From an uncultured Bacteroidaceae bacterium (GTDB lineage Bacteria > Bacteroidota > Bacteroidia > Bacteroidales > Bacteroidaceae), in contig CAJORF010000130.1 of the NCBI GenBank assembly GCA_905236985.1, forward strand, positions 1 to 64,000: DNA of 64,000 nucleotides. Reading direction: 5' to 3'. The notes beneath the pieces are model-generated. The model was not told where the DNA came from and did not search any database. It saw nothing but the letters and a program-made list of their open reading frames with translations. The number at the start of each line of letters is the position of its first letter. The stretch's first letter is position 1. Positions 15,754 through 37,754 of the stretch are shown here, one piece after another. The position numbers and the translations under genes are program-made.

Positions 15754-15784
15754 AAAAAAGCCGCCATTATCGGCGGCTTTTTTT
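15754..15784. terminator. GCCGCC hairpin terminator after the left ompA-like gene
   Basis: Stem GCCGCC/GGCGGC with a 6-nt loop, preceded by an A-run and followed by a T-run, so it works in both orientations. An almost identical hairpin follows the paralogous ompA-like gene at 40819-40848. Confidence 0.85.
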
Positions 15785-15799
15785 ATTTTCAATATTCAC

Positions 15800-16906: not shown

Positions 16907-16993
16907 ACTTTTTTAGTTTTTGAAAAGGTGTTAAACAATTAAACTATATTGATTTTCTATTATTTATATTTTATATTTCGTATTTCTCCCTCA

Positions 16994-19900
16994 TCACTTC
17001 ACCACGACCTTTCGTCCGTTGACGATATAGATGCCGGGCTTGGAAGAATTGGTTACGCGACGGCCAGAAAGGTCGAAGATGACACCCGTCTGAGGTGCTG
17101 CCTCAACTCCTTCAATGGCATCAGCACCGCCCTTGGCATAGTAGAAGAGCTCCATCTCCCTCTCAGCAGGGAAGAAATACTCACCAGCCTTGAAGAAATT
17201 GAGCGGAATCGGAATCATATAACCGCCATTATTCGTATCCGCTGTCAATGTCTCGTCGGATGCAAAGGTGAACTGATTGTTCTTTCCTTCAACACGGACA
17301 ACCGAAGTGGAAATGGTGCGGCCAGTGTAACGCTCCAAGACATCTATATTGTTCTCTTCAGTGATATCTACCACATTGAAATGGGGGAAGGTGATGGTGA
17401 TGTCTGAAAGCTTGGTGATATGCGAAGTGATCGGTTGAGGATCAAAGGTCATATTACCTCTATCATTATCGACGCTGATCATTGGAGTCAGGTATGCATT
17501 GACATGACAATCACCCTTACGCTTATTCTGCGGATCCTTCAACCACTCTGCGAAATTGGAGTCACCGAAAGTGCCGGCATAAATGTTATAGCAATACGTC
17601 TGCGCGGGTAGTGTACCATATTTGATAGGTTCGTCCATGACCAGTACCATGTGCGTCATCTTAGTGCCATATTGATCTACAAAGTTATTATCAAACTCCA
17701 AATGACCACGAGCATATTCATCTATCCCCCCCATAGTAGTTATCGTTACAGCCTTGTTCGTATCCAAACCATAAATACCTTGATCATAGATCACCATAGA
17801 GAAGTTGTTTAAGTCAACATCACGAACGAAAGTATCAATGTTAGGATAGTTGTGGTAGTACGTACTGTGCAAGTACAAGAAATCTTCTACGAAAACGGCA
17901 CTATTATTGACACGATAAGTAACTGAGATCGCCTTGACAGCAACAGTCTTTTCATTATAAGTATAAGTGAACGCGCCCTTAGGAATAGTCAACGTGTATG
18001 TACCGGCTGCCACATCATCAAAGAAGAAAACGAACTGACGACCAGTGTTCGTGATCTTGGTAGGCGTATATTGACGAGTGGAAGTGCCTTTCAGGACGAT
18101 TCCCTCACTGCTGACCAACTTGATACCATTCACATCATCCCCGAAGGTGAGCGTAATGTAATAGAGCGACTCCATTTCTGAGCCAGCGGCAGGTGTAAAG
18201 GTATAAGCGGCATCAGGCACAGGAGCGTCGGTCTCAGTCAAGCGGAAGGCATTAGTCTGTGTAGCGCTGAAGTAGCGCAAAGACTTATCGCGATTCGTTT
18301 CAAACAAAAGGCTTTCAAGATTAACAAGAGTATATGCAGTGATATCTTGCTCCTCATCATTTGTTCCGATAATGCCATTGATACTCCACAGGCCAAATAA
18401 TTGCTTCGGTGTATAGATATCATTGCCATGTTCGTCCTGAAGTACCAAACGACTAAAGGTCAGATTGTTCATCTTGTCCTTGGCATCAGAAACGTTGGCA
18501 CCAGTTGGCATCATCTGCTTTAGGAACTTGTGATCTGGTGTTTCAAACACGAGCGTACCATCTTCGTTAACAGTAGCCAACAGATGAGCCGCTTCCTCAG
18601 GATCACTCGTCAGGCTCACCTTGCCATTCTCGTAGCCGACATAGACTTCCTTGCCATCAGAGCCGACAGCTGAAAGGAGGTAATACCCAGACTTGGGCAT
18701 TTCAAGAACCGTTTCAGCATAAAAAGCGTCCATAGCAGCTTCAAAAAGCTCATCTGCTCCGACACCCTCATCAACGAGACTCTGGAGGGCCAAACGTGAA
18801 GGGCTATCTGCAGCAGGATAACCAGCACCTGTGAAGGCCAACAAATCTTGAGCGGCTTGGAAGACTTCATCGGAAGGATAAACTACGCCATTGACATTAT
18901 ATTCAAGCACCAACTCTGGGTTGAAGCGAGCACCGGCAGAAATGCCCTCATCTTCAGCTGTAGGATCATACCTACCATTCCAAATAAATTTTTCGGGGAT
19001 GGTAATATGATAAATACCTGACGTCTTAATTGCCGCTGTCTTAGAACCAGAGAAAACAAACTGAACATACTTATAGATGTCTCGATCGGCTTTGAAGAAG
19101 GGACGGTCAGCAGTATATTCGCTCTCAACGAGCCACTTAGCCTGCATGGTTCTGACAATGTTTCCCTCACGATCCGTAAGTTTCAGGTCATCCACCTCAA
19201 ATTTGCCGACCTCTCCGGGGAAGCCAAGAACAATGGTATCAATCTTTTCTACATTATCTGACATATCAGGCCAAAGAATATCGTTAACAAACTTATAATA
19301 AGCTTCTACAACATTAAAATAATAGGTTGTCTTCTTATTATAGAACTCATCGTCATCGGTAGTGATGATGGATTTCTCAGCAACAGTTAAGGTGTATGTT
19401 CCACGACTTGCTTCATTCGATTCGTCAATAGTCACGTCCTCAGGAAGTGAAAGAACGACCTTATTGCCGACAACCTTTGCCGACATCCTAACGGGATTGA
19501 ATCCACGTGGGCCATTCAAGACGAAACTTGCAGCTTCTCCGAGGTGAACAGGCTTAGCAAAATCAAAAGTGATTTCGTCAAGATGATGGATGTCTGACTT
19601 GTCAAGAGGAATGGTGTTTCTTGGTTCAAGCACATCCTGTGGTATCAAATAAGAAACTGTTACCTCTCGAATTTTAGGATTTTGGCCATTACAACTATAG
19701 TTTAAAGTAGTAACACCTAGGGCTCCTTCACTATACCAACTAAAGGTAGCAGCGTCCATTCTACCTACTCCAGTAGGAGAAATAAGCTGCAAATTCCCAG
19801 GGAAACTACTTTTTTCGAATACGAATGATTCAAGATCAGCGCCATTACTGGAAATAATGAAGCGAGAGCCACGAGAAAGAAATAAAAAATGTTCGAATGA

Positions 19901-20167
19901 ACCATCCTCTTGAGGCCACCCCGTAGTAAAGAAGCCACCCATGCCATCGGGGTAACGTCCTTCAAAACTAATAGAGACTTTGTCATCGGGGCTTCGAAAA
20001 GTCCAATCAGTTACATTTATTTCATGGCCATTATACTCTTCCTCAGGCAATTCAATTGCAGGTATAAGTCCAGACGCGTTAGAAAAATCAAAAGTATATG
20101 ATTTCTGTTTCTGCGCAAAGCCAAAGAAAGGGAGAAGTATCGTAATAACGATAAGAACTCGTTTCAT
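16994..20167 (-). CDS. Large secreted protein with short C-terminal sorting-like tail
   Basis: A protein of about 1057 residues, signal peptide MKRVLIVITILLPFFGFAQ. This start is preferred over one three codons upstream because it yields a canonical signal sequence. The body appears to be several beta-sandwich repeats. Phrases such as ITFDFAKPVHLGEAASFVL and TYTLTVAEKSIIT recur in later modules (YTLTIPKGAFTYTYNEK). The C-terminus (IFDLSGRRVTNSSKPGIYIVNGRKVVVK) is the short Prevotella tail seen also in the GH2 enzyme. No catalytic motif is recognised; an adhesin or surface-matrix component is possible. It lies in the left operon between the small lipoprotein and OmpA. Confidence 0.7.
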   Translation of the reverse strand: MKRVLIVITILLPFFGFAQKQKSYTFDFSNASGLIPAIELPEEEYNGHEINVTDWTFRSPDDKVSISFEGRYPDGMGGFFTTGWPQEDGSFEHFLFLSRGSRFIISSNGADLESFVFEKSSFPGNLQLISPTGVGRMDAATFSWYSEGALGVTTLNYSCNGQNPKIREVTVSYLIPQDVLEPRNTIPLDKSDIHHLDEITFDFAKPVHLGEAASFVLNGPRGFNPVRMSAKVVGNKVVLSLPEDVTIDESNEASRGTYTLTVAEKSIITTDDDEFYNKKTTYYFNVVEAYYKFVNDILWPDMSDNVEKIDTIVLGFPGEVGKFEVDDLKLTDREGNIVRTMQAKWLVESEYTADRPFFKADRDIYKYVQFVFSGSKTAAIKTSGIYHITIPEKFIWNGRYDPTAEDEGISAGARFNPELVLEYNVNGVVYPSDEVFQAAQDLLAFTGAGYPAADSPSRLALQSLVDEGVGADELFEAAMDAFYAETVLEMPKSGYYLLSAVGSDGKEVYVGYENGKVSLTSDPEEAAHLLATVNEDGTLVFETPDHKFLKQMMPTGANVSDAKDKMNNLTFSRLVLQDEHGNDIYTPKQLFGLWSINGIIGTNDEEQDITAYTLVNLESLLFETNRDKSLRYFSATQTNAFRLTETDAPVPDAAYTFTPAAGSEMESLYYITLTFGDDVNGIKLVSSEGIVLKGTSTRQYTPTKITNTGRQFVFFFDDVAAGTYTLTIPKGAFTYTYNEKTVAVKAISVTYRVNNSAVFVEDFLYLHSTYYHNYPNIDTFVRDVDLNNFSMVIYDQGIYGLDTNKAVTITTMGGIDEYARGHLEFDNNFVDQYGTKMTHMVLVMDEPIKYGTLPAQTYCYNIYAGTFGDSNFAEWLKDPQNKRKGDCHVNAYLTPMISVDNDRGNMTFDPQPITSHITKLSDITITFPHFNVVDITEENNIDVLERYTGRTISTSVVRVEGKNNQFTFASDETLTADTNNGGYMIPIPLNFFKAGEYFFPAEREMELFYYAKGGADAIEGVEAAPQTGVIFDLSGRRVTNSSKPGIYIVNGRKVVVK

Positions 20168-20200
20168 GGAGAACAAATATAAAAGTTATAGAGATAGGTA

Positions 20201-20680
20201 TTATCGTCTCATTTCATCAATACCCTGAGTACCTGTCTTGACACAGAGATACCACTGACCATCAACCTTTACAGGATTGAACATATAGGATGTTTTGGGA
20301 GCGCCAGCCTCATCAGGGCCAAACTGCACTTCATATTTAGCATCGTTGAGACCAGATTCCATGAATGAGACATATTTCAGCTCATATTTCAGCACGGGGA
20401 ACAACGTGAATTTTCTCTTATAGGAGGCACGTGTCTCATCGGTGAGTGGAGACACCTGCTGAAGGCTGTCGTCGTATAAGACGAGCATATCAAGGGCACC
20501 TTCAATATTACCCTCTGAAAGGAGTTGCATGCAACTGTCGCATTTCTGCAACATAATCGTGCTATCCTGAGATGTCAGACCATCTTGATACGCTTGACTG
20601 GCAGATTTCTTTTCAGTGCCAGTACATGCAATGAAGAAAATCATTGCTAAAATCGTGATAGGAAGTAAAACTTTCTTCAT
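20201..20680 (-). CDS. Small lipoprotein, left operon
   Basis: A 159-residue lipoprotein (lipobox FFIACT, Cys near residue 20). The middle has the phrase LLSEGNIEGALDMLVLYDDS and the C-terminus SYMFNPVKVDGQWYLCV. The protein at 31837-32328 has the matching segments YFKEGDYEGAIHLLNIV and CINFFLNPVEKDGRWFLTL in the same operon position, so the two are paralogues. The fold resembles DUF4878/SnoaL-like lipoproteins, but that is a guess. It probably partners the large lipoprotein encoded immediately upstream. Confidence 0.75.
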   Translation of the reverse strand: MKKVLLPITILAMIFFIACTGTEKKSASQAYQDGLTSQDSTIMLQKCDSCMQLLSEGNIEGALDMLVLYDDSLQQVSPLTDETRASYKRKFTLFPVLKYELKYVSFMESGLNDAKYEVQFGPDEAGAPKTSYMFNPVKVDGQWYLCVKTGTQGIDEMRR

Positions 20681-20783: not shown

Positions 20784-23700
20784 TCAGGGCTGAGGAGTTG
20801 TTGTGTTTCCACGGGTGAAATGAACGTTGATAACGATCGGCTGGTCGAGGATCACACCCCAGTCATATGTAACTGTGACAGGAACCTTAATCTTGAAGTC
20901 TTGGACGTTCAATTCGTTATTCTCGTAGAAGATATAACCGAACTTAGCCTTATCATTGTCAAGACCTTCCTGACGTGCATTGTCAAGACCCATGTAGGAG
21001 ATGAGGTCTGCATTCATCGTATGCATAGCATAGTCGATCGGGTTACGGAGATCGAAGCTAACCACATTACGATTCTTACCGCCAGGAGTACCGTTACCAG
21101 TGAGGCGAACCATGTTAGAGATAGAACTCATGGGAACAAATGTAGCAGGATTCGTCTGTGAAAGGTTAGTCTGAACAGCGCTGGTGCGCAGATCCATCGT
21201 AATCTCCTTCACTCCGTAATAAGCCCACAGCCACTGGTTCGGACGCCAGTTCTGAACAGTCCAATGAGCAGGAATACCAGTGTCACCCCACATATAACCA
21301 GTGTCGGTGATAGCACCTTGTCTTACTGGAACATTGCTTGCACCACGCCAGTCGAACAGCTTCAGAAGGTCAACCATATAGATATAGTCTCCGTTGTTAA
21401 TAGCGTCAACCATGAAGTCAGCCTCTTCGAGGATATTGATAGGACGCTCCCATGAAGCCTGGAAGACTGTGAAGTTCTTCGGCTCTTCCTTATCGTTCAT
21501 ACGGTTAGCGATGTTGCACTTCTGAGTAGCAATTACGCCAATGTATGCGCGGAGCTGCTTGCCAATCGGGTTACCATGATCCTCAAATTCACCAGTCAGG
21601 AGTTCGAGGTCACCATCGAAGGTCTGCTTACCAATCTTAGTGAGTTCATAACCGACAGCATTCAGACATGCCTCAGCAATTTCGTTCTCTTCACCTACAT
21701 GGTTATCGCTGTAGCAATCCTGGCTATTGAGCCATTTGTTCTCAACATACTCATGGAGAAGAGTGATCTGACCGCCATTCTCAGGATCAGTGTTGACAAT
21801 GATAGCAATAGGCTCATACTCGCGGCTGGAAGCCTGAACGTGATGCTGGTTCGAGTTGAAGCGCTTGGTATCAGGACCAGAAACTACGTAAGCATAGAGG
21901 GTATCGTTAGAGAACACACCGTCGGTCTTAGGCCAAGCACTTGCATTAGCAACAGTAGTTACGTTCATGCCATAAGCCATCTGGATACCAGCTGCATCGG
22001 GCTCATAGCGGATAGCACAAGAATTCAGGATTTCATTGTTCTTAAGCAATTCAGCAGAGTTGAACGGATTAGTCTGATCGAGCTTATATGCATGAGTATT
22101 GTTATTCCAGTACTTGCAGATGAACTTGTCAAAGACATTATCACCACTACCACGCTTCGGAGTTACCATGTAAACAGTTCCATCAAGAGCGGTAATCTTA
22201 TACTCGAACGGAGCGATATACAGCTTAGACTTAGTCTTGTTGCTGACTGCAATCTTGTTCTGATCCCAAGCAGCACGAAGCTCGTATGTCCAAGGAATTG
22301 TCGGACGAACAGCGGGATCGTTAACATCCTTCGGATAAGGAGTATTGATAGCTACAGACTGCAAGCCTTCAGCTGATTTAAGATCGAACCAGCCGTTCCA
22401 TGAACCATCAGCCTTGTACCAATAGTTCTCATCCTTCTTGCTTGTCTCAGAAGTGCCAATATCATCGCGATTGATAGTGAGAGTAAGCTTGATGAAGATG
22501 TCATCGTACTTAGCACCGGCACTGTGCTCACGTGTGCTGCTATAGAAGTGACCTGTGTAGTGGATCCAGCGAGTAACTGTGACAGGCGTGCTACCAGCAT
22601 CGGGCGAACCAGCGTGATGAGTCATAGCCTCGAGTTCCTCAGCAGAAATAGTCCACCAATAAGTGTGGTTAGAAACACCGTCAACATTCTCCTCAGTGTA
22701 GATGTGACCAACCTGACAAGCAGACCAGTTAGAAGCATTGAAAGCAACACCAGTTACATTCTTGTAGTAGTAGTACTCATTGGGACTCTCAGCGATGGGT
22801 GAACCAGACTGGATGTACTGAGCTACCTCTACATCACGGTTCTCACCAGTGGGGTTCTGAGGACCAGCAGCAGCGAGCTCTACAGCATACTGAGCATCGA
22901 ACTGCTCTTTCTCCATCTCGTTCAGAGCATTCTTCAAGACGCGAGCATTGAACATTGCATAATCCCAGTAGTTGGTGCGGCCATACTTGGTAGTGGAAGC
23001 ATCGTTGCAGAGATCGAATTTAATAGATTCTGTGGGATACTCAATCTCAAGCTTCTCAGGACGTGTGATATGCAGACGGATGTAACCATCGAGCACGCAC
23101 TTTGCGTTGAGAGCATTGAAAGCGTCGATATCCTTCTTAGGCTCGCTGGAAGTGTTGAGGCTCTGCCACTTCTCCATGTTGCTGATGTCGCTGAAGTGAT
23201 AGAAACGAACACGTACCAGAGGCTCACGACCTACAGATGTGTGAGTAGTGGATTCATAGGTAGCACCAACCTCTGTGATATCAGCAGAAACCAAAGCACC
23301 AGTTCTGTGATCAGTAAATCTCATGTAGCGGCTGTCATGGGTCTTGTTGGTATCAACATAGTAGTCAACGGTATCAAATACCCAAACGAAACCGTAGCGA
23401 CGGAGCTCTTCGGAGTCGAACTTCCAAGTCTGGATGTTCTTGTGGTCAGCAACATTCTTGGTGATAGGCTCGTTCTGTTCGAAGTACCAGTGGATACCGA
23501 GGTACTTGGAGAGAACAACTTCCTGATCAATGTAGAGTTCGATGTCAGCGGGGTGCAAGAGAGCCTCTTCAGGAGTATCCCAAACGTGTACCCACTTACC
23601 GCAACGAGGACCTTCTTCGTCACGACCGTTGGCAGCTGTGCCATCACCAGTACGATACTTATAAGGAACACCACCGTCGAGAGCTGCGCAGCTAGCATAG

Positions 23701-25367
23701 TTGCCGTCGCCATAACCCTTCTTGTTCTCCCAGAAGTCCTTGATGCGCTCGTTCTGGCTCTTCCAGTAACCAGGATTGGTGTTCCAGATCATACCCTCGA
23801 TCTTCACCTTCTCGGGAAGAATCTGAGCATAGTCAGAAGTGATGATGGTGTCCTTACCTGCAGCTGCATAGTCAGCAGCTGACTTGCTGGAACGTGCCTG
23901 CAGAGCAGCCATAACGTTGTAAACGCTTTCGGGGCTCCTGCCATCGTTAGTGTCTTCCTTCAGATCGCTGGGGAAGTGGTTGGAACCAGCAGCGACACCA
24001 GGATTGTCGATCTTCTCAACGTTTGTAATCTGGAGACCAAGCGTCATGATACCATTCTTCTTCTCCCAGATGTTGTCGTTCTTGTACTGGTTATCCCAGT
24101 TGTTGCGAGGAGTGAAGCCGTATGTGCTGGCTGTGTTATTCTTGGTGTCATAGAAAGCACGAGTCAGAACTTCGCCTTCATAGACATACCAACCCATAAC
24201 GCTTGCAAACTCGGTGCTTGCGTTGCCGGGGTTCATGTGGTACTGAACAGGCCATACGGGACCGTAAGCGACAGAGTCGGGAGCAGCGAGCTTGCGATAG
24301 TCTTCGAGGTCGCGGAGGTTGACAACAACGTCGTCATCCTTCTCCTTACGAGTCTGAGCAAGGTTCTTCTGGTTAACCAGACGCTCATACTTCAGATACG
24401 GATACTCGATAGTCTCGATACCGTTAACATAGAGCTTCGGCATATAGACAAGGCCGCGGAGGTCGTCAACGAGGATCTTGAACATCTGATCGAGAGTGCC
24501 AAGGGATGCTGCTGTTGCCTCAGCCTGAGCCTTCACACCAGCGATGTTGGTGTTGATCGTAGTGATTTCATTGGTAACCTGAGTAGCAAATGCGGAATAC
24601 TCGCCCTTCAGACCTTGAAGGTCCGTATTGACACCATCAATCTTGTCGTTGATAGTCTTGACAGCAGCGTCAATCTTGTCGTTCACCTGCTTGTCGAGAT
24701 CAGCAATGCTCTTCTCGAGAGCAGCAATCTTGTTACCAGCTGCGTCAATCTTGTTCTTCAGCTCGGTGTCATTGTAGCCATCGGAATCAGAGCCCTTGAC
24801 AATCTGGTCGGCGAGAGCCTTCAGGGCGGCATCCTGAGCCTTCACAGCGTCCTCAAGGTTGGTGACGCGCTTGGTGAGATCACCGAAAGCAGTGGTGAGT
24901 GTACCGTACTTAGCCTCGAAATCGGAGAGCTTGTCGGAGAGGGCCTTGAGGTCCTTGCCCACCTGCTGGATGTTACCATCCTGGTCAGACAGCAGTTTCA
25001 CAATGTCGTCGATGCGCTGATTGGCCTTAGCGATAGCCTGATCAAGAGCTGCATCTTTCTCCTGAAGGGACTTGACATCCTTGTCATGAGCAGCCTTCAG
25101 GTCAGCTTTCGCTGCCTCAATTAATTCCTTAGCTGCAGCGAGGGTCTGCTTGTCGCCCTCCTTGTAAGCAGCATCGATAGCGGTCACCTGAGTGTTCAAC
25201 GTTGTCAACGTAGTGTTGATCGTTGCAATCTTAGTGTTGACCACCTCGTCAAGTTGTCTCTGCAAGTCATTGATGTCATCATCATAATCCTTACAAGACA
25301 CGAACGTACTTGTCGAAGCGATGGTAAGCACTCCGAACAAGATCGCGCTAAAAATTTTTTTGTACAT
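20784..25367 (-). CDS. Giant coiled-coil surface lipoprotein (left operon, S-layer-like)
   Basis: A 1527-residue protein. The signal peptide MYKKIFSAILFGVLTIAST ends in a lipobox-like FVSCKDYDDDI (Cys about residue 26). Residues about 28-300 are a long predicted coiled coil with heptads of L/I/A and no Pro (LQRQLDEVV, ITTINTNIAGVKAQ). The rest is beta-rich, with many aromatic residues and no catalytic motif. The end (FKIKVPVTVTYDWGVILDQPIVINV) matches the end of the right-operon protein (FKLKIPVQIEYYWGIIYDDVTITI). The N-terminal pattern is like the SCKDYDDDI lipoproteins annotated with PL29-N/DUF4988 domains. It probably forms an abundant surface layer. No consensus promoter is seen upstream in the present orientation. 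Confidence 0.8.
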   Translation of the reverse strand: MYKKIFSAILFGVLTIASTSTFVSCKDYDDDINDLQRQLDEVVNTKIATINTTLTTLNTQVTAIDAAYKEGDKQTLAAAKELIEAAKADLKAAHDKDVKSLQEKDAALDQAIAKANQRIDDIVKLLSDQDGNIQQVGKDLKALSDKLSDFEAKYGTLTTAFGDLTKRVTNLEDAVKAQDAALKALADQIVKGSDSDGYNDTELKNKIDAAGNKIAALEKSIADLDKQVNDKIDAAVKTINDKIDGVNTDLQGLKGEYSAFATQVTNEITTINTNIAGVKAQAEATAASLGTLDQMFKILVDDLRGLVYMPKLYVNGIETIEYPYLKYERLVNQKNLAQTRKEKDDDVVVNLRDLEDYRKLAAPDSVAYGPVWPVQYHMNPGNASTEFASVMGWYVYEGEVLTRAFYDTKNNTASTYGFTPRNNWDNQYKNDNIWEKKNGIMTLGLQITNVEKIDNPGVAAGSNHFPSDLKEDTNDGRSPESVYNVMAALQARSSKSAADYAAAGKDTIITSDYAQILPEKVKIEGMIWNTNPGYWKSQNERIKDFWENKKGYGDGNYASCAALDGGVPYKYRTGDGTAANGRDEEGPRCGKWVHVWDTPEEALLHPADIELYIDQEVVLSKYLGIHWYFEQNEPITKNVADHKNIQTWKFDSEELRRYGFVWVFDTVDYYVDTNKTHDSRYMRFTDHRTGALVSADITEVGATYESTTHTSVGREPLVRVRFYHFSDISNMEKWQSLNTSSEPKKDIDAFNALNAKCVLDGYIRLHITRPEKLEIEYPTESIKFDLCNDASTTKYGRTNYWDYAMFNARVLKNALNEMEKEQFDAQYAVELAAAGPQNPTGENRDVEVAQYIQSGSPIAESPNEYYYYKNVTGVAFNASNWSACQVGHIYTEENVDGVSNHTYWWTISAEELEAMTHHAGSPDAGSTPVTVTRWIHYTGHFYSSTREHSAGAKYDDIFIKLTLTINRDDIGTSETSKKDENYWYKADGSWNGWFDLKSAEGLQSVAINTPYPKDVNDPAVRPTIPWTYELRAAWDQNKIAVSNKTKSKLYIAPFEYKITALDGTVYMVTPKRGSGDNVFDKFICKYWNNNTHAYKLDQTNPFNSAELLKNNEILNSCAIRYEPDAAGIQMAYGMNVTTVANASAWPKTDGVFSNDTLYAYVVSGPDTKRFNSNQHHVQASSREYEPIAIIVNTDPENGGQITLLHEYVENKWLNSQDCYSDNHVGEENEIAEACLNAVGYELTKIGKQTFDGDLELLTGEFEDHGNPIGKQLRAYIGVIATQKCNIANRMNDKEEPKNFTVFQASWERPINILEEADFMVDAINNGDYIYMVDLLKLFDWRGASNVPVRQGAITDTGYMWGDTGIPAHWTVQNWRPNQWLWAYYGVKEITMDLRTSAVQTNLSQTNPATFVPMSSISNMVRLTGNGTPGGKNRNVVSFDLRNPIDYAMHTMNADLISYMGLDNARQEGLDNDKAKFGYIFYENNELNVQDFKIKVPVTVTYDWGVILDQPIVINVHFTRGNTTTPQP

Positions 25368-25570
25368 AAAGATAAAAATTTTTAAAAAGGGTTATTGAAT
25401 GGTTGATAATTGTTTGTTTTCTCTTTCATTTTTGCTTGGCGGCAGCTGGTTTGACCGCTGCACGTCATTTTTAGGGCGTTTCTCTCTTTTTCTGTTTCGT
25501 ACTTTAGCGTTGACGGGTCTCCTTAAACCCGGTTTTTCACGTTAATATGCCACCTCTTCGGGAGAGATGG
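25271..25570. repeat. Left copy of ~300-bp inverted repeat (5' leader plus signal-peptide codons)
   Basis: Read on the minus strand, this segment matches 27741-28041 on the plus strand with about 14 differences by eye (about 95% identity). It covers the 5' leader and the first ~30 codons of the large lipoprotein gene. Identity is highest in the untranslated part. The similarity stops abruptly at 25570 on the recombinase side. Confidence 0.92.
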
Positions 25571-25733
25571 ACACGAAACACCTGACTTATATTTTAAAGT
25601 ATAAAACTTGTTTTGTAAAAATACTGTACATTTTTACATTTGGTATACCAGGTTGCCAAAGACTGGCTGATGAACCTCACCAATGAACAATCAGGAGAAT
25701 ATTTAGTTCGTGCGCGAAAAACAGCCATTCGCG

Positions 25734-26062
25734 AAAAAGGTTTCAGCTTTCAGCTTTACTCGTATCACACTCACAATCACACTCTTTTAGGCTGAGCCTT
25801 TATCGGCGAAGTTTCAGCAGGCTTCAGCAAGCTTCAGCCAATACCCACTCTTCGCTATCTTAAACTCAAAACGTCCAATGTGGCGTGTAGTTACGCGCCC
25901 CCATCATCCGTCATTATCGCACAGCGTGACTCCTGTTTTGCACAACATGACCGTTTTCTGAACCTTCCTGAAGCTTGCTGAAACTTCAAGCGTAAGGGTT
26001 CAGAATGTATGAATTTGAACGACAGTAGGTTAAATCCACAACCTGAAAGCTGAAACCTTTTT
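25734..26062. repeat. Nested inverted repeats in the gap upstream of the recombinase
   Basis: The outer arms AAAAAGGTTTCAGCTTTCAG (25734-25753) and its exact complement (26043-26062) enclose a second pair, GAAGTTTCAGCAGGCTTCAG (25808-25827) and its complement with one mismatch (25968-25987). The TTCAGC word is also tandemly repeated on the left. The 894-bp gap 25571-26464 has no credible gene. This structure and the tandem repeat below are what it holds. Confidence 0.8.
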
Positions 26063-26177
26063 TGTAAATGGCTTGATTTTCCCGAATCACTTCACGCGTC
26101 CAGTCGTACATCGCCATACGTCTAAACGTGTGAGGCAAAACGTACAGTCGTTCACGCTTGAAAGTCTATATGTCCAC

Positions 26178-26260
26178 ACCCTTAGGAGACTTCGCGAGAA
26201 CCCTTAGGAGTCTACGCGAGAACCCTTAGGAGACTTCATGAGAACCCTTAGGAGTCATGA
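26178..26260. repeat. 22-bp tandem repeat (about 3.7 units)
   Basis: The unit ACCCTTAGGAGACTTCGCGAGA starts at 26178, 26200, 26222 and 26244 (partial). Units alternate AGACTTC and AGTCTAC/AGTCATG in the middle. It sits about 200 bp before the recombinase start and may be an iteron-like binding array or a remnant of variable DNA. Confidence 0.8.
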
Positions 26261-26464
26261 TCCTTGTATCCGTAGCGCAAAAAATCACATACTCCTGTTC
26301 ATTGAGGTTGTAGAAGCGGTCTATCAAGAGTGAAATGAGGAAGATATTGGCAGAAACGACGTTTGAACATAGGAAAAATACGCTGAACATGAAAAAAGGA
26401 TGGAAAAATGTTCCCATTGTGAGGGTTTTTACCCATTTTTGCGGCTCGTTTAAAATATGATACT

Positions 26465-27358
26465 ATGAACTATTTACAACTTATCTACGACCTTGCAGAG
26501 CAAAAAGAGCTGACAGGTCATACCAGAACGGCAGCTAACTACCGTTCGGCAGCGAGGGCATTCACTCGTTTCCTCCATACTAGAGACATGAACGAACTGC
26601 ACATCGAACGCCTTACGCCTGTGTTGGCGATGCAGTTTGAAAACTACTTACTACATACTCAGGGCGTATGTCGTAACACCAGCAGTTTCTACATCCGTCA
26701 GTTGCGCGCTGCCTATAACACGGCTGTCCGTGATGGATGCTGCACAGACCTTCAGCCATTCCGTGATGTCTACAAGAGTGTGGCGGCTACACGCAAACGT
26801 GCAGCCGAGGCAGAAGATCTACAGCGCCTTTTTCATCTCGACCTCACAGATAACCCCGAACTCATGTTCTCGCGAGATCTCTTCTATTTCTGTTTCCTTG
26901 GCAGAGGTATCCCCTTCATAGACCTCGTTAAGTTGCAGAAACGACATATCGAAGGTGCGCACCTCATCTATCAGCGCAGTAAGACAGGGCAGCTGGTTGT
27001 TGTGGAGCTTGCGCCTGCCATGAAAAGCATCATTGAACGGTGGCATCAGGCAACATCCCGATGCCTTTTTCCCATCCTCCCCGCTGGTTTTACGCAGCGC
27101 AGCTACGACTCTGCACTGCGCCGCTATAACCGTCATCTGAAGCTTCTCTCGCATCTTTGTGGCCTGGAGTGCCATCTTTCATCCTATATCGCGCGCCACA
27201 GTTGGGCATCCGAAGCATACCGTTTAGGTGTGCCGATACAGACAATCAGCACTTGCATGGGGCATACTACAGAAGAAACGACCCACATCTACCTTCGCTC
27301 ACTCTCGACCACGCATATCGACCAATCGGCTCGAACCGTCCTCAAGGTCTATGGATGA
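26465..27358 (+). CDS. Tyrosine recombinase (candidate DNA invertase)
   Basis: A 297-residue protein with an N-terminal SAM-like core-binding domain (residues about 1-105) and a C-terminal catalytic domain. Visible catalytic residues are an Arg at 147 (GRGIPFIDLVKL), Lys173 (RSKTG), Arg244 in SYIARHSWAS, His267 in MGHTTEETT and the nucleophile Tyr276 (HIYL). The SY.ARH.WA form of box II is typical of Bacteroidota recombinases that flip promoters. It lies inside the segment bounded by the ~300-bp inverted repeats, between two divergent surface operons. No excisionase, phage or conjugation gene is nearby, which argues for a resident invertase over an integrative element. Confidence 0.9.
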   Translation: MNYLQLIYDLAEQKELTGHTRTAANYRSAARAFTRFLHTRDMNELHIERLTPVLAMQFENYLLHTQGVCRNTSSFYIRQLRAAYNTAVRDGCCTDLQPFRDVYKSVAATRKRAAEAEDLQRLFHLDLTDNPELMFSRDLFYFCFLGRGIPFIDLVKLQKRHIEGAHLIYQRSKTGQLVVVELAPAMKSIIERWHQATSRCLFPILPAGFTQRSYDSALRRYNRHLKLLSHLCGLECHLSSYIARHSWASEAYRLGVPIQTISTCMGHTTEETTHIYLRSLSTTHIDQSARTVLKVYG

Positions 27359-27648
27359 CCCAAGCAGAAAACTCGTTTCTGAAACATTTCAGTAAAATAG
27401 TCCCTACACCTTATTATAATATACGCGCGCGAACCTTTTATTATTTTTGCACTCCTCATTCCCGTCGAAAATGTGCCAGATGATGACTAAAATGATGGCA
27501 GAAATTACCCTGCGAAAGGCCTCGTTTGATGTTAACTTCAGAACAGGTTGCAGAGGGGCCCTTGACGACAGATTTTTATGCCTTCACCAAACGTTAAAAA
27601 CACAAAAAAGTATGCTTTTGTACCCGCTTTTTGTCCGAAAACACCCCT

Positions 27649-27683
27649 CAGACCGCTTTTTTTGCGGTTTTAGAGCATTTTTT
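27649..27683 (+). terminator. Possible weak terminator between recombinase and right-operon promoter
   Basis: The short stem ACCGC/GCGGT (27652-27668) with a T7 loop is followed by TTTAGAGCATTTTTTTAA. It would shield the right-operon promoter from read-through. The rest of the 27359-27690 gap shows a TATTTTTG box at 27442-27449 and a doubtful small frame from 27471, but no supported gene. Confidence 0.35.
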
Positions 27684-27694
27684 TAATAACTTTT

Positions 27695-27725
27695 TTTGGT
27701 GAGAATGAAATTATGCGTACATTTG
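27695..27725 (+). promoter_or_regulatory. Consensus promoter of the right surface operon
   Basis: TTTG (27695-27698), a 19-bp spacer and TACATTTG (27718-27725) match the full Bacteroidota -33/-7 consensus. The expected start is about 27731, giving a ~210-nt leader before the ATG at 27946. It lies just inside the putative invertible segment (the inverted repeat begins at 27741). No comparable promoter is visible at the left end. Confidence 0.8.
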
Positions 27726-27740
27726 CACCGAAATAGACAT

Positions 27741-28041
27741 CCATCTCTCCCGAAGAGGTGGTCATATTAACGTGAAAAACCGGGTTTAAGGAGACCCGTC
27801 AACGCTAAAGTACGAAACAGAAAAAGAGAGAAACGCCCTAAAAACGACGTGCAGCGGTCAAACCAGCTGCCGCCAAGCAAAAATGAAAGAATAAACAAAC
27901 AAAGTTCAACTTTTCAATAACCCTTTTTTAAAAATTTTTATCTCTATGTACAAAAAAATTTTTAGCGCGATCTTGTTCGGAGTGATTACCATCGCTTCGA
28001 CAAGTACGTTCGTTTCTTGTAAGGATTATGGTGATGACATC
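27741..28041. repeat. Right copy of ~300-bp inverted repeat (5' leader plus signal-peptide codons)
   Basis: Inverted partner of 25271-25570. The transcribed leader contains two hairpins: CGGGT-TTAAGGAG-ACCCG (about 27781-27798) and GCAGCGGT-CAA-ACC(A)GCTGC (27851-27870). The first ~150 nt differ from the left copy at only about two positions, stronger conservation than the coding sequence that follows. This suggests a functional RNA leader, recombination-driven homogenisation, or both. Confidence 0.92.
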
Positions 28042-31000
28042 GCAGACTTACAGAAACAGATTGCGTCCAATGAGCAGGCTTTGGCAGCATTAAACAACCA
28101 ATGGGCTCAGGGCGTTGTAATTACCGATGTCAAGCAAGATGGTAGTGGTGTTGTGCTTACTACCAGTGATGGCAACTCCTATCGTATTGCCAATGGTACT
28201 AACGGTACTAACGGCACTAATGGCGCAGACGCTGATGTGTGGAACATCGGTGAAGATGGCTATTGGTACAAGAACGGCGTCAAGACACCCTACATCGCAC
28301 TTGGTGCCCCTGGAACTTCGGGCGAAGACGGCAAGGATGGCGTCAATGGTAAGGACGGCAAGGATGGCGTCAATGGTAAGGACGGTAAGGACGGTAAGGA
28401 CGGCAAGGATGGCAAGGACGGCAAAGATGGCGTCAATGGCCAGAATGGCGACTATTATGTTCCTAATGTTGACGGCTATTTCCACAAGTTTACGTGGAAC
28501 ACTACCACCCAGCAGTATGATGAGATTACTACGGATATCCAGTGGGCGCAAAATGGCGGTATCTCTGCTGCCATGAACAAGAGAGGCATTGTCATCACTG
28601 GCGTAGATGGCTATGAAGAAGGTATTTACCTTCCCATCGCTTGTGATCTCACAGGTTTGGTATTCCGCCCCGATACTTATTATTGGGGTATTGAGGCCAC
28701 CAAGATTACCCGCCTGACTCCGAAGTACTATCTGGAAGAAGGTTCAGGCTGGATTTGGAAGCCCTTAACTTCCTATATCGACGATCCCGCTGTACGTGAG
28801 GAGGTTGTAGGAACTCAGGATTGGGTATCCGCTGTGAAAGAGCCGCAGATTGCCAACTATTTTATTGCAGGTGCATTGACTGATCACGATCGTTACTCAC
28901 AAAGCAGTGGCACCATTACTGTTATGCTGAATGCTGTGGCCAACTACCACATCAATCCTTCGAACGCATATTTTGACAATGCAACAAGCGTAAGCATCAT
29001 TAGCGATAACAAGAGCTACACCCGATCACGCGGTAATGCAGAGGTTGACGTGCTCGGTGCCAAAACTGGTTCAGAACACAGCTGGAGTGTTGCCGATGGC
29101 GTTCTCAGCGTGCCTTTGAAGGTGACTGGTAATATCAGTTCCGTTGTGAACACCTCCGTTGACAACTCCAACAGCTATGCTACCGTGTTTGCTACTCAGG
29201 TTCACTATAGTGACACTGTTGTTACCTCCGACTATGCTGCTATCGTTGAAGAGAAGGTCTCTGATCTCCGCTTGTCTCATGTGAAGAATGTTCCTACTCG
29301 TAACACGGACTACACACACTTCATTGCGACCAAGATGTTCAATGATCACTGCGGTGCTTGTGACCTTTACAAGCTCTCTGGCAAGTCGATGGGTATGCAC
29401 CTTTTCGCCACCGTTGATGAAGCTCGCTATGCTGTCAGCAATGCTAATGCCACCTATGGCGTTGCAGCAGGTGATGGTCAGGATCGCGTTAACTTCCAGG
29501 AAGATATTGATTTAACGGCTCTTGTCGAAACGCACTATACTAATGCCGCTGGCAATCACGCTAAATTTGAGGGCGAGAACTTCGACCGCAATTTTGAATA
29601 TAAGTTCGAATTGACAGACTTCCGTTTTGGTAACAACGCTACTAACGAGTCTGCCCACGCTGCAATATATGTTGCAGACGGTTCCAACGGTACTGTTAAA
29701 GGTCACTATTATCTCCATCCTCAGGATCCTGAAGCTGCTTCTAATGGTTTGAAGGGTCGTGCTTACAACGCAGCTAAGGCTACCGAAGTCGTTATCGACC
29801 GTGTTCCCCTCGTCCGTGTTTCTTTGATTTATAAGGGTGAGACTCCTAATCGTATCATTGACTATGGCTATTTGCCCATCAAGATTGTTCGTAAGGATGA
29901 GGCTCCCGTCGAGACATTTATTACTTATGCATATGATTCTAAGACTCCTGTTCCTACGGTTACTCGCTACAACGACTGCTACACTGTAGGTGGTGGTACA
30001 ATCGAGGCTATCAGAACTAATTGGCGTGAAACTGAGGAAGACCTCATGAGTCATAAGGATCTTCCCAAGGTATTCACTCGTGAAGAGTTTGAGTCCAACT
30101 ATGGTCTGCTCGGTGGCACGATTACAACTGGTGGTGCCCAGTATGCAATTTCTGGTTCCGTTAGTGACCTCGACCAGTATTATATTACAAACTATGCAGC
30201 TTGGAATGCTAACAAGACCGGTGTTGAGCCGAAGTTCGCAGCAACTAATGCTTCCAACCCAGCTTATGGTCAGATTGGTTACGAGGAAGATAACCAGAGT
30301 GGCTTCAATATGGCAACCTCTGTCCTCACTTGGAATATCAGTGATTACGAGATTCGCGACCTCGTCTCGAATGGTACCACTCAGCTGACTCGCGCTATTC
30401 TCCTCAAGTCCAGAAATGTCTCATATCCTGACATCTATGTAATCTTTACAACTGGAAAGATGACTCTTGATAAGAAGACTGTCACAGCAAATATAAATGT
30501 TACTGCTAAACGTATCAATGAATATTGGTATAAGTTTGGTAACGCAACTGCTAGTGGCTTTGCAATTGGTGCAGATGAAATTCATACCAACGTCACAACA
30601 CCTGAAGAAAATCTTGGTGCGAAGGGTGCTCCTTATCTTACATGGAAGCCTATCGAATTCAAGAATACTCTTCTCTATGATTTCCAGGGTAACTTCCTAC
30701 AGGGCGACTTCTTGACTTGGACTACACTTACAGGTGCTCCTGCTAATGGCCCATTCGTTAAGAGCAACTTGAAGTATGGTATTGTCTTTGATGATAGTGG
30801 TAATGGCACATACAAAGGCTATTTGGATTCAGGTTCAGCCAAGAGCTTCACAGTGAGCAACACTACAGTTGGTGATCTTTCTATGAAGAATCTCTATGCT
30901 ACCTACAATGGTACAACTCAGCGTATTGCCCACATTGAAGAGAATACAGGCAACTCATGGGATGGCTCCAATGTTAGTGATTTGAGAGGAACTTGCATTA

Positions 31001-31761
31001 AGCTCGATGAAACATTGTATGCTAAGGCATTGTTGAATTATGTTAGCCATGAGTATATTGGTAGCAATGACGTCTTAAAGGCAAGGATTGCAGTTCTGCC
31101 TCTCTCACAGAATGCCACGACAGGCAAGCCTGTTACATTGACCAATGTTAATAATGGCAAGGCTACTGTAAAGGCTGCAATTAAGTATATGTCCAATGGT
31201 GCTCCTGTTTACTGTGATCTCCAGATTGAAGATTATCTCTTCGATGTTCGCTTCTTGCGCCCGATTTCATTGAACAAGGTAGACGATACAGTCATTGAAG
31301 ATGCTACAAGTGAATATGATCAGCCTCAGATCATCAAACTTTCTTCACTTATCCATGGCTTCACAGACTTCCGCGGCAACGAGCTTGCTACTCCTCCTGT
31401 GATGAACTGGAAGACAAGTGCAGCTATCGACTATGAAGAGTACTATTCTCCCTCTGGAACTAATGTATTCACTATTAACATTCCGTCTGTTCCCGTAGGT
31501 TCTTACATCAGTAATAACGTGAATGTGAAGACTAACTTGAATCAGGCTAATCCTAATACGTTTGTTTCTTTGAAGTCTGTTGCTCCTGATCTACATTTCA
31601 AGCGTATTTCTGCTGATGAGCTTGAATACTACAACGTCAATTCGACAGTCGCAGAATTCAAGTTGAAGATTCCTGTTCAGATTGAGTATTACTGGGGTAT
31701 CATCTATGATGATGTTACTATAACCATCAAGAAGACCCAGAATAATGTCAAGGCTCAGTAA
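27946..31761 (+). CDS. Large collagen-like surface lipoprotein (right operon)
   Basis: A 1271-residue protein. Signal peptide and lipobox (MYKKIFSAILFGVITIAST, FVSCKDYGDDI) are nearly identical to the left protein. After a short coiled coil comes a DUF4988/PL29-N-like segment (ITDVKQDGSGVVLTTSDGN, then NGTNGTNG, then DVWNIGEDGYWYKNG). It is followed by a Gly-X-Y tract of about 13 triplets (GKDG/GVNG) at residues ~126-165. The remaining ~1000 residues are beta-rich and end in a segment shared with the left protein. It is a probable surface-layer or matrix protein. It is first in the right operon, behind a consensus promoter and a 210-nt leader. Confidence 0.8.
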   Translation: MYKKIFSAILFGVITIASTSTFVSCKDYGDDIADLQKQIASNEQALAALNNQWAQGVVITDVKQDGSGVVLTTSDGNSYRIANGTNGTNGTNGADADVWNIGEDGYWYKNGVKTPYIALGAPGTSGEDGKDGVNGKDGKDGVNGKDGKDGKDGKDGKDGKDGVNGQNGDYYVPNVDGYFHKFTWNTTTQQYDEITTDIQWAQNGGISAAMNKRGIVITGVDGYEEGIYLPIACDLTGLVFRPDTYYWGIEATKITRLTPKYYLEEGSGWIWKPLTSYIDDPAVREEVVGTQDWVSAVKEPQIANYFIAGALTDHDRYSQSSGTITVMLNAVANYHINPSNAYFDNATSVSIISDNKSYTRSRGNAEVDVLGAKTGSEHSWSVADGVLSVPLKVTGNISSVVNTSVDNSNSYATVFATQVHYSDTVVTSDYAAIVEEKVSDLRLSHVKNVPTRNTDYTHFIATKMFNDHCGACDLYKLSGKSMGMHLFATVDEARYAVSNANATYGVAAGDGQDRVNFQEDIDLTALVETHYTNAAGNHAKFEGENFDRNFEYKFELTDFRFGNNATNESAHAAIYVADGSNGTVKGHYYLHPQDPEAASNGLKGRAYNAAKATEVVIDRVPLVRVSLIYKGETPNRIIDYGYLPIKIVRKDEAPVETFITYAYDSKTPVPTVTRYNDCYTVGGGTIEAIRTNWRETEEDLMSHKDLPKVFTREEFESNYGLLGGTITTGGAQYAISGSVSDLDQYYITNYAAWNANKTGVEPKFAATNASNPAYGQIGYEEDNQSGFNMATSVLTWNISDYEIRDLVSNGTTQLTRAILLKSRNVSYPDIYVIFTTGKMTLDKKTVTANINVTAKRINEYWYKFGNATASGFAIGADEIHTNVTTPEENLGAKGAPYLTWKPIEFKNTLLYDFQGNFLQGDFLTWTTLTGAPANGPFVKSNLKYGIVFDDSGNGTYKGYLDSGSAKSFTVSNTTVGDLSMKNLYATYNGTTQRIAHIEENTGNSWDGSNVSDLRGTCIKLDETLYAKALLNYVSHEYIGSNDVLKARIAVLPLSQNATTGKPVTLTNVNNGKATVKAAIKYMSNGAPVYCDLQIEDYLFDVRFLRPISLNKVDDTVIEDATSEYDQPQIIKLSSLIHGFTDFRGNELATPPVMNWKTSAAIDYEEYYSPSGTNVFTINIPSVPVGSYISNNVNVKTNLNQANPNTFVSLKSVAPDLHFKRISADELEYYNVNSTVAEFKLKIPVQIEYYWGIIYDDVTITIKKTQNNVKAQ
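28321..28440 (+). repeat. Collagen-like GKDG/GVNG codon repeat
   Basis: The 9-nt unit GGCAAGGAC (GlyLysAsp) and the variant GGCGTCAAT (GlyValAsn) alternate over 40 codons. Near-identical units make the tract prone to in-frame length change. A separate AATGGTACT (AsnGlyThr) triplication lies at about 28192-28220. Confidence 0.85.
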
Positions 31762-31836: not shown

Positions 31837-32328
31837 ATGAGACATTCTTACTCTTATTTTCTACTCTTAATCACCCTTTTCCTTTTGGCTTCTTGTCACG
31901 AAAAGAAGGTTGCAGAAGCTCCAGATTTAAGTCTTCCGGTCTTTGAGTTTTCTAATGAAGACTCTTTAGCCATCAGCAATCTGGCCGATCAGTATATGGC
32001 ATATTTTAAGGAAGGTGACTACGAAGGAGCTATACACTTATTGAACATCGTTCGTAACGACTCCATTCTTCCTTTACCAGCAGAGCAAGCTGAGGGCTTT
32101 AAGAAAGCCATGTCCCTGCTTCCAATCGTTGACTGCTCGCTGAAAGATCTTGTACTTTATAGCAATCGTGATAATGAACTGCGCATTGCCCTTCAGATCT
32201 CAGAAGACGGTGATATGCAAACGGGCAAAGGCTGCATAAACTTCTTCCTCAATCCCGTTGAAAAAGATGGACGCTGGTTCCTCACTCTTCGCGACGAATA
32301 TGCTGAGGGAGTCGGCCTGTATCATTAA
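31837..32328 (+). CDS. Small lipoprotein, right operon
   Basis: A 163-residue lipoprotein (LLASCHE, Cys near residue 20). It is related to the protein at 20201-20680: DYEGAIHLLNIV, an ~LLPIVDCSLKDL middle and NPVEKDGRWFLTL near the end. Both follow the large lipoprotein after a hairpin. The function is not known; a chaperone or anchor for the large surface protein would fit the conserved pairing, but this is inference. Confidence 0.75.
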   Translation: MRHSYSYFLLLITLFLLASCHEKKVAEAPDLSLPVFEFSNEDSLAISNLADQYMAYFKEGDYEGAIHLLNIVRNDSILPLPAEQAEGFKKAMSLLPIVDCSLKDLVLYSNRDNELRIALQISEDGDMQTGKGCINFFLNPVEKDGRWFLTLRDEYAEGVGLYH

Positions 32329-32346
32329 TATATCCTTCTAACGCAC

Positions 32347-32781
32347 ATGAATTGCCGCGATATCCTTATAATCCTTGTCTGTTGTTTGTTGTGTTTCGGA
32401 TGTAAACGCAAATCTACCCCACAATTGATGCCCATCACCCCATCTGATGGTGTCCCATCAGTCCCCTATGCAGAACTATATATAGCATCCGAAGTAGATA
32501 TGGGCACTTTCGAAGGTGATACAGTAAAGAAGTCTGTTGATATTACAATGATTAATACAGGCACAGATACTCTCTTCGTCCGAAATGCTCTTCCCGAGTG
32601 CTCTTGTACAGAACTATTCATTCGAGACTCCATTCTTCTGCCTGGTGATAGTGGTATCATAACGGCTACGCTGGACGTCAACGGCTATCCCTCAGACTCA
32701 GTTCGTCGAGAATTTGGAATTCTTAGCAATGACCGACGTGAGCGTGTGAAGCGAGTTGCTCTCATAGGTGTAAGAAAATAA
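32347..32781 (+). CDS. DUF1573 domain lipoprotein
   Basis: A 144-residue lipoprotein (LLCFGCKRK). It contains one DUF1573 Ig-like domain: YIASEVDMGTFEGDTVKKSVDITMINTGTD, ECSCTEL and the end ILSNDRRERVKRVALIG. The conserved pair of Cys in CSCT and the NTG motif are typical. DUF1573 proteins are periplasmic or surface Ig-fold proteins of unknown function. It starts 18 nt after the small lipoprotein stop and has no counterpart in the left operon. Confidence 0.82.
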   Translation: MNCRDILIILVCCLLCFGCKRKSTPQLMPITPSDGVPSVPYAELYIASEVDMGTFEGDTVKKSVDITMINTGTDTLFVRNALPECSCTELFIRDSILLPGDSGIITATLDVNGYPSDSVRREFGILSNDRRERVKRVALIGVRK

Positions 32782-32800
32782 CAAATGTATAAATAATCCA

Positions 32801-33313
32801 ATGAAATACGACTATAAAAAATACTCAGTAGCTGCAATGTTGTGCCTTGCAACATTGAATCCTATGAAAGCTGCAGAGGAGGTGTTGGTCTACGTTCATG
32901 GCCAACATGCTCCGCTTTTTAATTGTTGGCTTACTGACAAGCCCATTATTACATTCAATGAAAATGGGCTTCTTATTAAATCATCAACTCTTGAAACGAC
33001 ATTGGCCGTACGATATTCAGAGATATCTAATATAGAGTTCAAAAGTAGTGATTCCGACATTCTTACAGACATCGAAGATGCAGAGAATCAAGCTACCGCA
33101 TCCATGCGTTTCCGTTATGTAGATGGCAAGATAGTTGTCGTAGAGGGGCTTGGAAATGATGCGCCAGTTCACTTGTATTCATTGGATGGAAAGAATGCCG
33201 TTTTGAACGTTACGAAGACAGCGGATCGCATTACAGTTCATCTTGAGCACCTCTCCAAAGGCATCTATTTACTTCATATAGACAATCAAACTTTTAAAAT
33301 ATACAAAAAATAA
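32801..33313 (+). CDS. Small secreted protein with type A sorting-like C-terminal domain
   Basis: A 170-residue protein with a probable signal peptide (VAAMLCLATLNPMKAAEE). The last ~70 residues look like a T9SS type A tail: ASMRFRYVDGKIVVVEG, HLYSLDGKNAVL and LSKGIYLLHIDNQTFKIYKK. The N-terminal part (VYVHGQHAPLFNCWLTDKPIITF) is short, so the protein is essentially a small cargo plus a sorting domain. It suggests the right operon delivers material through the type IX system. The stop is followed at once by an IS-like remnant. Confidence 0.6.
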   Translation: MKYDYKKYSVAAMLCLATLNPMKAAEEVLVYVHGQHAPLFNCWLTDKPIITFNENGLLIKSSTLETTLAVRYSEISNIEFKSSDSDILTDIEDAENQATASMRFRYVDGKIVVVEGLGNDAPVHLYSLDGKNAVLNVTKTADRITVHLEHLSKGIYLLHIDNQTFKIYKK

Positions 33314-36219: not shown

Positions 36220-36261
36220 AAATGCAGCTTTTCCCAATTAAATTTCAATATATTACTTATT

Positions 36262-37752: not shown

Positions 37753-37754
37753 TT

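What the first reader, a model, noticed from the sequence alone, without database searches (positions are those of the whole stretch)
25271..28041. Candidate promoter-inversion switch: tyrosine recombinase between inverted leader repeats of two divergent surface operons
A recombinase with intact Arg/His/Tyr residues lies within a 2.17-kb segment (25571-27740). The segment is bounded by ~300-bp inverted repeats of about 95% identity. Each repeat carries the 5' leader and signal-peptide codons of a large lipoprotein gene that faces outward. Inside the segment, a full TTTG-N19-TACATTTG promoter faces the right operon; the left end has no such promoter. Crossover within the repeats would turn the promoter and recombinase toward the left operon while keeping an identical leader and signal peptide. 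Phase-variable surface proteins driven by invertible promoters and tyrosine recombinases are known in Bacteroidales. This compact either/or layout, with the recombinase riding on the flipping segment, may be new.
Basis: partly seen in the sequence, partly recalled or inferred. Interest (0 to 1): 0.93.

Follow-up and report, generated by a model that had tools for sequence, protein, structure and literature searches.

The report
Self-carrying either/or surface-protein switch
A Prevotellaceae bacterium carries a 2.2-kb DNA segment, holding a predicted promoter and a recombinase gene, that lies in opposite orientations in two related species and would thereby choose which of two predicted surface-protein operons is switched on.

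Summary
Confirmed and sharpened. Repeats (319 bp, 94%) bound a 2,168-bp segment with a tyrosine recombinase and one outward promoter match, between two divergent large predicted lipoprotein operons. In a related genome (G138, contig CAMZHV010000011.1) both flanks are collinear with the window but the segment is inverted, so its promoter faces the other operon. A third species (G006) has the same layout with a 56%-identical recombinase. The crossover is inferred to lie in a 22-bp palindrome at the inner edge of each repeat: segment-linked bases end just before it and operon-linked bases start just after it. Related recombinases have the same kind of palindrome, as short inverted pairs just downstream of their gene, at 29 of 60 loci against 16 of 1,120 control windows. 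In none of those 60 was such a pair found around the recombinase; one (G206) has a different spanning repeat. So this looks like a Bacteroidales promoter-inversion switch rebuilt as an either/or switch with the recombinase riding on the segment: Hin-like layout and Vpma-like 5'-leader logic in one compact unit. Inversion within a clone, transcription and recombinase activity are untested.

The parts
25572..27739 (.). invertible segment (2,168 bp between the palindromic sites)
   Evidence: same segment in opposite orientation relative to flanks in G138:C11
25550..25571 (+). left palindromic site CCACCTCT-TCGGG-AGAGATGG(A)
27740..27761 (+). right palindromic site (T)CCATCTCT-CCCGA-AGAGGTGG
25255..25571 (-). 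left leader repeat (5' leader, signal peptide codons of left gene, site at inner edge)
   Evidence: 94% identical to the right repeat over 319 bp
27740..28058 (+). right leader repeat
26465..27358 (+). tyrosine recombinase, 297 aa
27695..27725 (+). outward promoter match TTTG-N19-TACATTTG facing the right operon
   Evidence: the same sequence faces the left operon in G138
25612..25642 (+). inward promoter match TTTG-N19-TACATTTG, would serve the recombinase (inferred)
   Evidence: G006 has an inward match near the same end; G138 keeps the -7 but not the upstream TTTG
20784..25367 (-). left lipoprotein, 1527 aa, coiled-coil-like; not faced by the outward promoter in this assembly
20201..20680 (-). 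left operon gene, 159 aa, no Pfam family
   Evidence: same transcript inferred
16994..20176 (-). left operon gene, 1060 aa, no Pfam family
   Evidence: same transcript inferred
15800..16906 (-). OmpA-family gene at the end of the left operon
27946..31761 (+). right lipoprotein, 1271 aa, collagen-like GKDG repeats; faced by the outward promoter in this assembly
31837..33313 (+). three small right operon genes (163, 144, 170 aa; DUF1573; T9SS sorting domain)
   Evidence: same transcript inferred
33751..39659 (+). right-side surface genes (fn3/Lcl_C, two Mfa-like fimbrillins)
   Evidence: membership in the same transcript is inferred
39700..40800 (+). OmpA-family gene, inverted paralogue (80% nt) of 15800-16906

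Best explanation
The 2,168-bp segment between two 22-bp palindromes is a likely site-specific inversion switch that would connect its single predicted outward promoter to one or the other of two divergent predicted surface-lipoprotein operons, and it lies in opposite orientations in two related genomes. Shown by sequence: the anatomy, the opposite orientations with collinear flanks, and the recurrence of the same palindrome type next to related recombinases. Inferred: the recombinase in the segment cuts at the palindromes, which would lie near the start of the transcript, so the promoter and recombinase flip while each gene keeps its own leader and signal peptide; one operon is transcribed per cell; the inward promoter keeps the recombinase expressed in both states; the result is alternation of surface proteins, plausibly against phage or host immunity.
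For: Inversion: G138:C11 365-12790 = window 52191-39733 and 19189-39483 = window 25571-5039 (both reversed), but 16711-19509 = window 25266-28061 forward. The longest exact stretch shared by the arms is 82 bp in the window and 25 bp in G138, so a flip by the assembler is unlikely. Promoter logic: in G138 and G006 the gene facing the promoter end has the full promoter match, as the window's right gene has, and the three opposite genes have no TAnnTTTG within 600 nt. Breakpoint: ACA (promoter end) or GTG (other end) directly inside the palindrome travels with the segment; right-operon leaders read TCATATT in both genomes and left-operon leaders are one base shorter in both. Site: 29 of 60 homologue loci have palindromic TCTC..GAGA-type inverted pairs, all 29 starting 13-270 bp downstream of the recombinase, against 16 of 1,120 control windows. 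Conservation: G006 has recombinase (56%), sites, outward and inward promoter matches and two outward lipoproteins.
Against: No reads, RNA or protein data; no within-strain inversion seen. The inverted genome is another species with a different right operon, so a single old inversion, or import in the other orientation, is not excluded. The operon-linked mark next to the palindrome is one base; and inside the leader one stretch (GGCTAAG in both G138 leaders, GGTCAAA in both window leaders) follows the genome, not the operon, so leaders also exchange sequence within a genome. The window and G006 leaders are near-identical through the inner ~150-190 bp, which homologous exchange could explain. 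The palindrome also occurs once, unpaired, in loci without an adjacent recombinase (G011, G028, G107; a variant in G034), so it may serve as an mRNA hairpin. No such pair was found at 31 of 60 homologue loci.
Confidence: 0.85

Rival explanations
1. Inversion by general homologous recombination between the ~300-bp leader repeats, with the recombinase a bystander.
For: Repeats are 94% identical in the window, with near-identity in the inner half; G006 arms share 191 exact bases; one leader stretch follows the genome rather than the operon.
Against: In G138 the arms are 86% identical with at most 25 exact shared bases. The leader bases near the start codon stay with the left gene across the two orientations. 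The palindrome matches the sites of related recombinases.
Confidence: 0.07
2. A former switch now locked: the recombinase and sites are relics and the orientation is fixed in each species.
For: Only one orientation per assembly; single-promoter, single-site loci without an adjacent recombinase exist in G011, G028 and G107.
Against: The residues that are invariant in the family are intact. The recombinase gene differs at 2 of 894 bases between the two genomes and the promoter end at 3 of 381 aligned, far less than the background, yet the orientations differ.
Confidence: 0.1
3. The segment is a mobile element inserted between two operons, not a regulatory switch.
For: A recombinase lies between two sites; segment and right flank look recently exchanged between species.
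Against: The sites are inverted, not direct; the outward promoter is alike to the promoter of single-site loci; the lipoprotein leaders continue directly from the sites in three genomes.
Confidence: 0.03

Closest known systems
Bacteroidales invertible promoters run by tyrosine recombinases (B. fragilis Tsr19/BF2766, Tsr0667; PMC4747536 passages)
   Same: Tyrosine recombinase, TAnnTTTG promoter between inverted repeats, surface genes; homologues in this genus and family show the same palindrome type.
   Different: In the homologues with sites found here the pair is short and downstream of the recombinase gene; here the recombinase is inside and two operons would alternate.
B. thetaiotaomicron BT1927 S-layer switch (PMC12548429 passages)
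   Same: Large surface protein behind an invertible promoter.
   Different: Described as an ON/OFF promoter, not either/or. Homology of the proteins was not tested.
Salmonella Hin flagellar switch (PMC5903667 passage; layout otherwise recalled)
   Same: Recombinase and promoter both inside the inverting segment.
   Different: Serine recombinase; its other antigen is silenced through a repressor (recalled), not by a second outward operon.
Mycoplasma Vpma/Vsp switches with Xer1 (PMC2268961 passages)
   Same: One promoter, tyrosine recombinase, recombination site in the 5' untranslated region, conserved 5' UTR and signal peptide of lipoproteins.
   Different: Cluster of several genes with xer1 at the locus; here a two-way switch with the recombinase on the flipping piece, in another phylum.
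Campylobacter fetus sap S-layer inversion (recalled; PMC3887049 passages, describe one sap promoter and one transcribed homologue)
   Same: One promoter serving alternative surface-layer genes.
   Different: Different phylum; no recombinase in the segment (recalled).

Membership tests
Bacteroidales tyrosine-recombinase promoter invertons | tyrosine recombinase of the SAM-5/Phage_integrase type with intact family-invariant residues | tested here: met
Bacteroidales tyrosine-recombinase promoter invertons | Bacteroidota -7 promoter (TAnnTTTG) between inverted sites | tested here: met
Bacteroidales tyrosine-recombinase promoter invertons | site sequence like that of homologous recombinases | tested here: met
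Bacteroidales tyrosine-recombinase promoter invertons | recombinase outside a short segment (usual, not strictly defining) | tested here: not met
   inside in G000, G138 and G006
Bacteroidales tyrosine-recombinase promoter invertons | reversible inversion by the recombinase in living cells | not testable with these tools
   no reads or cultures; inverted orientation seen between species
Hin-type switch | recombinase gene within the inverting segment | tested here: met
Hin-type switch | serine recombinase | tested here: not met
Vpma/Vsp-type switch | single outward promoter, site in the 5' leader, conserved 5' UTR and signal peptide | tested here: met
   (by sequence; transcript not mapped)
Vpma/Vsp-type switch | cluster of more than two alternative genes | tested here: not met
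   two outward genes
BT1927-type S-layer lipoproteins | protein homology to BT1927 and S-layer formation | not tested
   the BT1927 sequence was not compared; no PDB match for either lipoprotein

The most novel reading that the evidence does not exclude
A self-carrying either/or antigen switch: a Bacteroidales promoter-invertase has been captured inside its own invertible segment, using the 5'-leader hairpin of a surface-lipoprotein family as its crossover site, so that one exchangeable cassette always fires exactly one of two operons and moves between species while the operons around it diversify.
Probability: 0.6. Interest if true: 0.8.

Novelty: new variant of a known kind. Interest (0 to 1): 0.74.

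Why it matters
The Bacteroidales surface switches described in the passages read turn a locus on or off. This one would ensure that one surface coat is always made and would swap it for another in a single step, with its own enzyme aboard. It gives a testable natural series in one genus for one lipoprotein family: predicted fixed promoter (G011, G028, G107), predicted ON/OFF (G063, G135) and either/or (G000, G138, G006). It also gives a compact two-state module and a defined recombinase/site pair to test.

Tried and rejected
No Rfam family in 24800-28600 at E <= 0.1. No PDB sequence relative of either lipoprotein at E <= 0.01. Leader hairpin: 8 of 8 pairs kept in 6 of 6 leaders, two pairs with a change on both sides, but 35 of 500 shuffles do as well, so RNA-level selection is suggested, not shown. 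G130 (51% recombinase) and the g29 genomes G166 and G188 show no site pair; G206 has a 48-bp repeat (not of the TCTC..GAGA type) on both sides of its recombinase in a 3.8-kb contig, unresolved. Several of the 60 homologue contigs end near the recombinase, so a missed pair is possible. The outer OmpA repeats as a second inversion: rejected, since both outer flanks are collinear in G138. First repeat test on 30 genus loci: 15 of 30 against 24 of 300 controls; two of the 15 are the window and G138 through an unrelated repeat, so one search used 13 of 27 (window, G138 and G006 left out). A stricter palindrome test gave 8 of 30, one of them G006, against 7 of 400. The motif was written after arms had been seen; the same motif was run on the controls. 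In one search two of 27 lipoprotein loci (L179, L188) were not located by the script; L188 is the window's right gene, for which searches were used. Literature: all 10 paper searches used (one search listed 25 of 140 papers and 12 of 74); none of the listed titles named this arrangement. The one subscription paper that I looked up, on a B. fragilis invertase, is not held, so novelty is provisional.
Full report
Observation. The window holds inverted repeats at 25255-25571 and 27740-28058, 94% identical over 319 bp, with no third copy in the held assembly. Between them lie 2,168 bp with one tyrosine recombinase gene (26465-27358). Outside, two large genes point away: a 1527-aa coiled-coil-like lipoprotein to the left and a 1271-aa lipoprotein with collagen-like repeats to the right. 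BLASTP aligns the two directly only over the first 60 residues, where the signal peptide is shared; both align at about 26% with the left protein of G006, so they are probably distant paralogues. Full promoter matches are at 27695-27725, outward to the right, and at 25612-25642, inward towards the recombinase; both read +.

The inverted state exists. A search of genome contigs with the recombinase found CAMZHV010000011.1, an uncultured Prevotellaceae assembly, which by length and position is contig G138:C11 of the genus set. Its recombinase differs by one residue. On both sides its order runs as in the window (reversed: 365-12790 = window 52191-39733; 19189-39483 = window 25571-5039), but the segment itself (16711-19509) runs the other way. 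So in the window the promoter faces the collagen-like operon, and in G138 it faces the coiled-coil operon. On the far side G138 has a different large lipoprotein (1171 aa), alike to the window's left protein only over the first ~290 residues (32%). The arms in G138 share at most 25 exact bases, so I judge a flip by the assembler unlikely.

Timing. In 1-kb windows of G138 the left flank is 72-87% identical to the window sequence, the right side beyond 47.5 kb 74-80%, and the left operon 64-84%. The recombinase gene is 99.8% identical, the promoter end 99.2%, the left non-coding part 95.6%, and the right flank from 39.7 to 47.5 kb 94.7-98.1% in seven of eight 1-kb windows and 87.7% in the eighth. 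The cassette and right flank therefore look recently exchanged between species, and the inversion would be at least as recent as the divergence of that segment (inference).

Where the crossover lies. Directly inside the 22-bp palindrome TCCATCTCTCCCGAAGAGGTGG the promoter end reads ACA and the other end GTG in both genomes, whichever operon they face. Directly outside, right-operon leaders read TCATATT and left-operon leaders lack one base, in both genomes. Further out, bases near the start codon also stay with the left gene. Against this simple picture, one stretch in mid-leader follows the genome and not the operon (GGCTAAG in both G138 leaders, GGTCAAA in both window leaders), which suggests exchange between the two leaders of one genome. 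The best reading confines the inversion exchange to the palindrome, with the caveat that the nearest outer mark is one base.

The palindrome is of a site type that recurs in this recombinase family. I fetched the 20 best-ranked genus homologues other than G006 and G138 (of 67 matching genomes among 139) and the 40 best-ranked loci not yet held from a 399-genome family search. Of these 60, 38 have an exact inverted pair of 15 bp or more with a 60-700 bp gap within 1.5 kb of the recombinase (controls 41 of 1,120), and 29 have palindromic TCTC..GAGA-type arms (controls 16 of 1,120); all 29 begin 13-270 bp downstream of the recombinase (the motif was written after seeing arms). Some carry the longer form seen here, for example CACCTCTACGCAAGAGGTGGA in G204. 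In the earlier look at 30 genus loci, 14 have arms of this kind, and by my count each of these has a TAnnTTTG box 9-21 bp inside an arm; here the gap between box and site is 14 bp. Around none of the 60 recombinases did the search (exact repeats of 17 bp or more, within 4 kb) find such sites on both sides; one, G206, has another spanning repeat.

A second lineage. G006 has a 56%-identical recombinase between perfect palindromes, arms of 349 bp at 92.5%, an outward and an inward promoter match, and two outward lipoproteins, the right one 62% identical to the window's. In G138 and G006 the gene facing the promoter end has the full match, as the window's right gene has, and each of the three opposite genes has no TAnnTTTG within 600 nt. 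In a tree of 82 recombinases these three fall in one 15-row set (SH-aLRT 95) whose other 12 rows are metagenome proteins without context. A search of 399 relatives, overlapping the earlier sets, gave no further genome with a recombinase above 51% identity (E <= 1e-75).

A possible evolutionary series. The same lipoprotein N-terminus is found in 21 of 139 genus genomes, 27 hits. G011, G028 and G107 have the promoter, one site and no second site in the stretch fetched, and G034 a variant site: single-operon, fixed control by inference. G063 and G135 have inverted pairs around the upstream region, as in ordinary ON/OFF control. In G063 the only -7 box that I see between the arms faces away from the gene; in G135 boxes face both ways, so its state is open. 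The window, G138 and G006 would have either/or control. The unpaired sites, each 23 nt from the start of the -7 box in G011, G028, G107 and G034, suggest that the palindrome is also a 5' hairpin of the transcript; pairing is kept in 6 of 6 leaders, but the covariation does not clearly beat shuffles (35 of 500).

Mechanism. Most likely the recombinase pairs the two palindromes and inverts the piece between them. Because the sites would lie near the transcript start, either leader can follow the promoter without damage, and each operon keeps its own leader and signal peptide. With one outward promoter, one operon would be on and the other off. Shown: anatomy, orientation difference between species, site family. 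Inferred: enzyme action, exclusivity, recombinase expression from the inward promoter, and the selective reason (phage or immunity, by analogy with BT1927, PMC12548429 passages).

Known systems. Recombinases are mostly next to the switch and occasionally inside it, as Hin is (PMC5903667 passage); in gut Bacteroidaceae they are frequently upstream of the invertible promoter (PMC13114119 passage). Vpma shows the same leader logic with a tyrosine recombinase (PMC2268961 passages). No title listed in ten searches of an open-licence library named this combination (two of the lists were cut), and most subscription papers are outside it. I file it as a new variant of a known kind.

Noticed in passing
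window 15750-16943 and 39664-40852: OmpA-family genes end both operons as inverted paralogues (80%); in G138 the two copies are 91% alike and its left copy is nearer to the window's right copy, which suggests gene conversion between operon ends.
   Followed up: partly
window 39700-47500 against G138:C11 5000-12790: Right flank 94.7-98.1% identical in seven of eight 1-kb windows, next to regions at 72-87%: a likely recent exchange tract beside the switch.
   Followed up: partly
window 26178-26256: Tandem 22-bp units (ACCCTTAGGAGACTTCGCGAGA and variants) upstream of the recombinase; role unknown.
   Followed up: no
window 25713-26084: Imperfect inverted repeat with ~127-bp arms (71%) inside the segment; possibly remnant of a small element.
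   Followed up: no
G010:C170, G010:C155, G018:C32, G063:C150 (L169, L191, L179, L192): In four of 27 hits the contig ends inside the signal peptide or within about 65 bp upstream of the lipoprotein start, as repeats or mixed orientations would cause.
   Followed up: no
L178 (G063:C147) and L182 (G135:C4): Relatives of the lipoprotein sit behind ordinary inverted-repeat segments; in G063 the -7 box faces away from the gene, in G135 boxes face both ways.
   Followed up: partly
L130 (G206:C149) 1-48 and 3624-3671: A 48-bp repeat lies on both sides of a 43%-identical recombinase on a 3.8-kb contig.
   Followed up: no
window 27647-27675: Hairpin ACCGC-T7-GCGGT between recombinase and outward promoter, not listed by the terminator scan; might insulate the two transcripts.
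   Followed up: no
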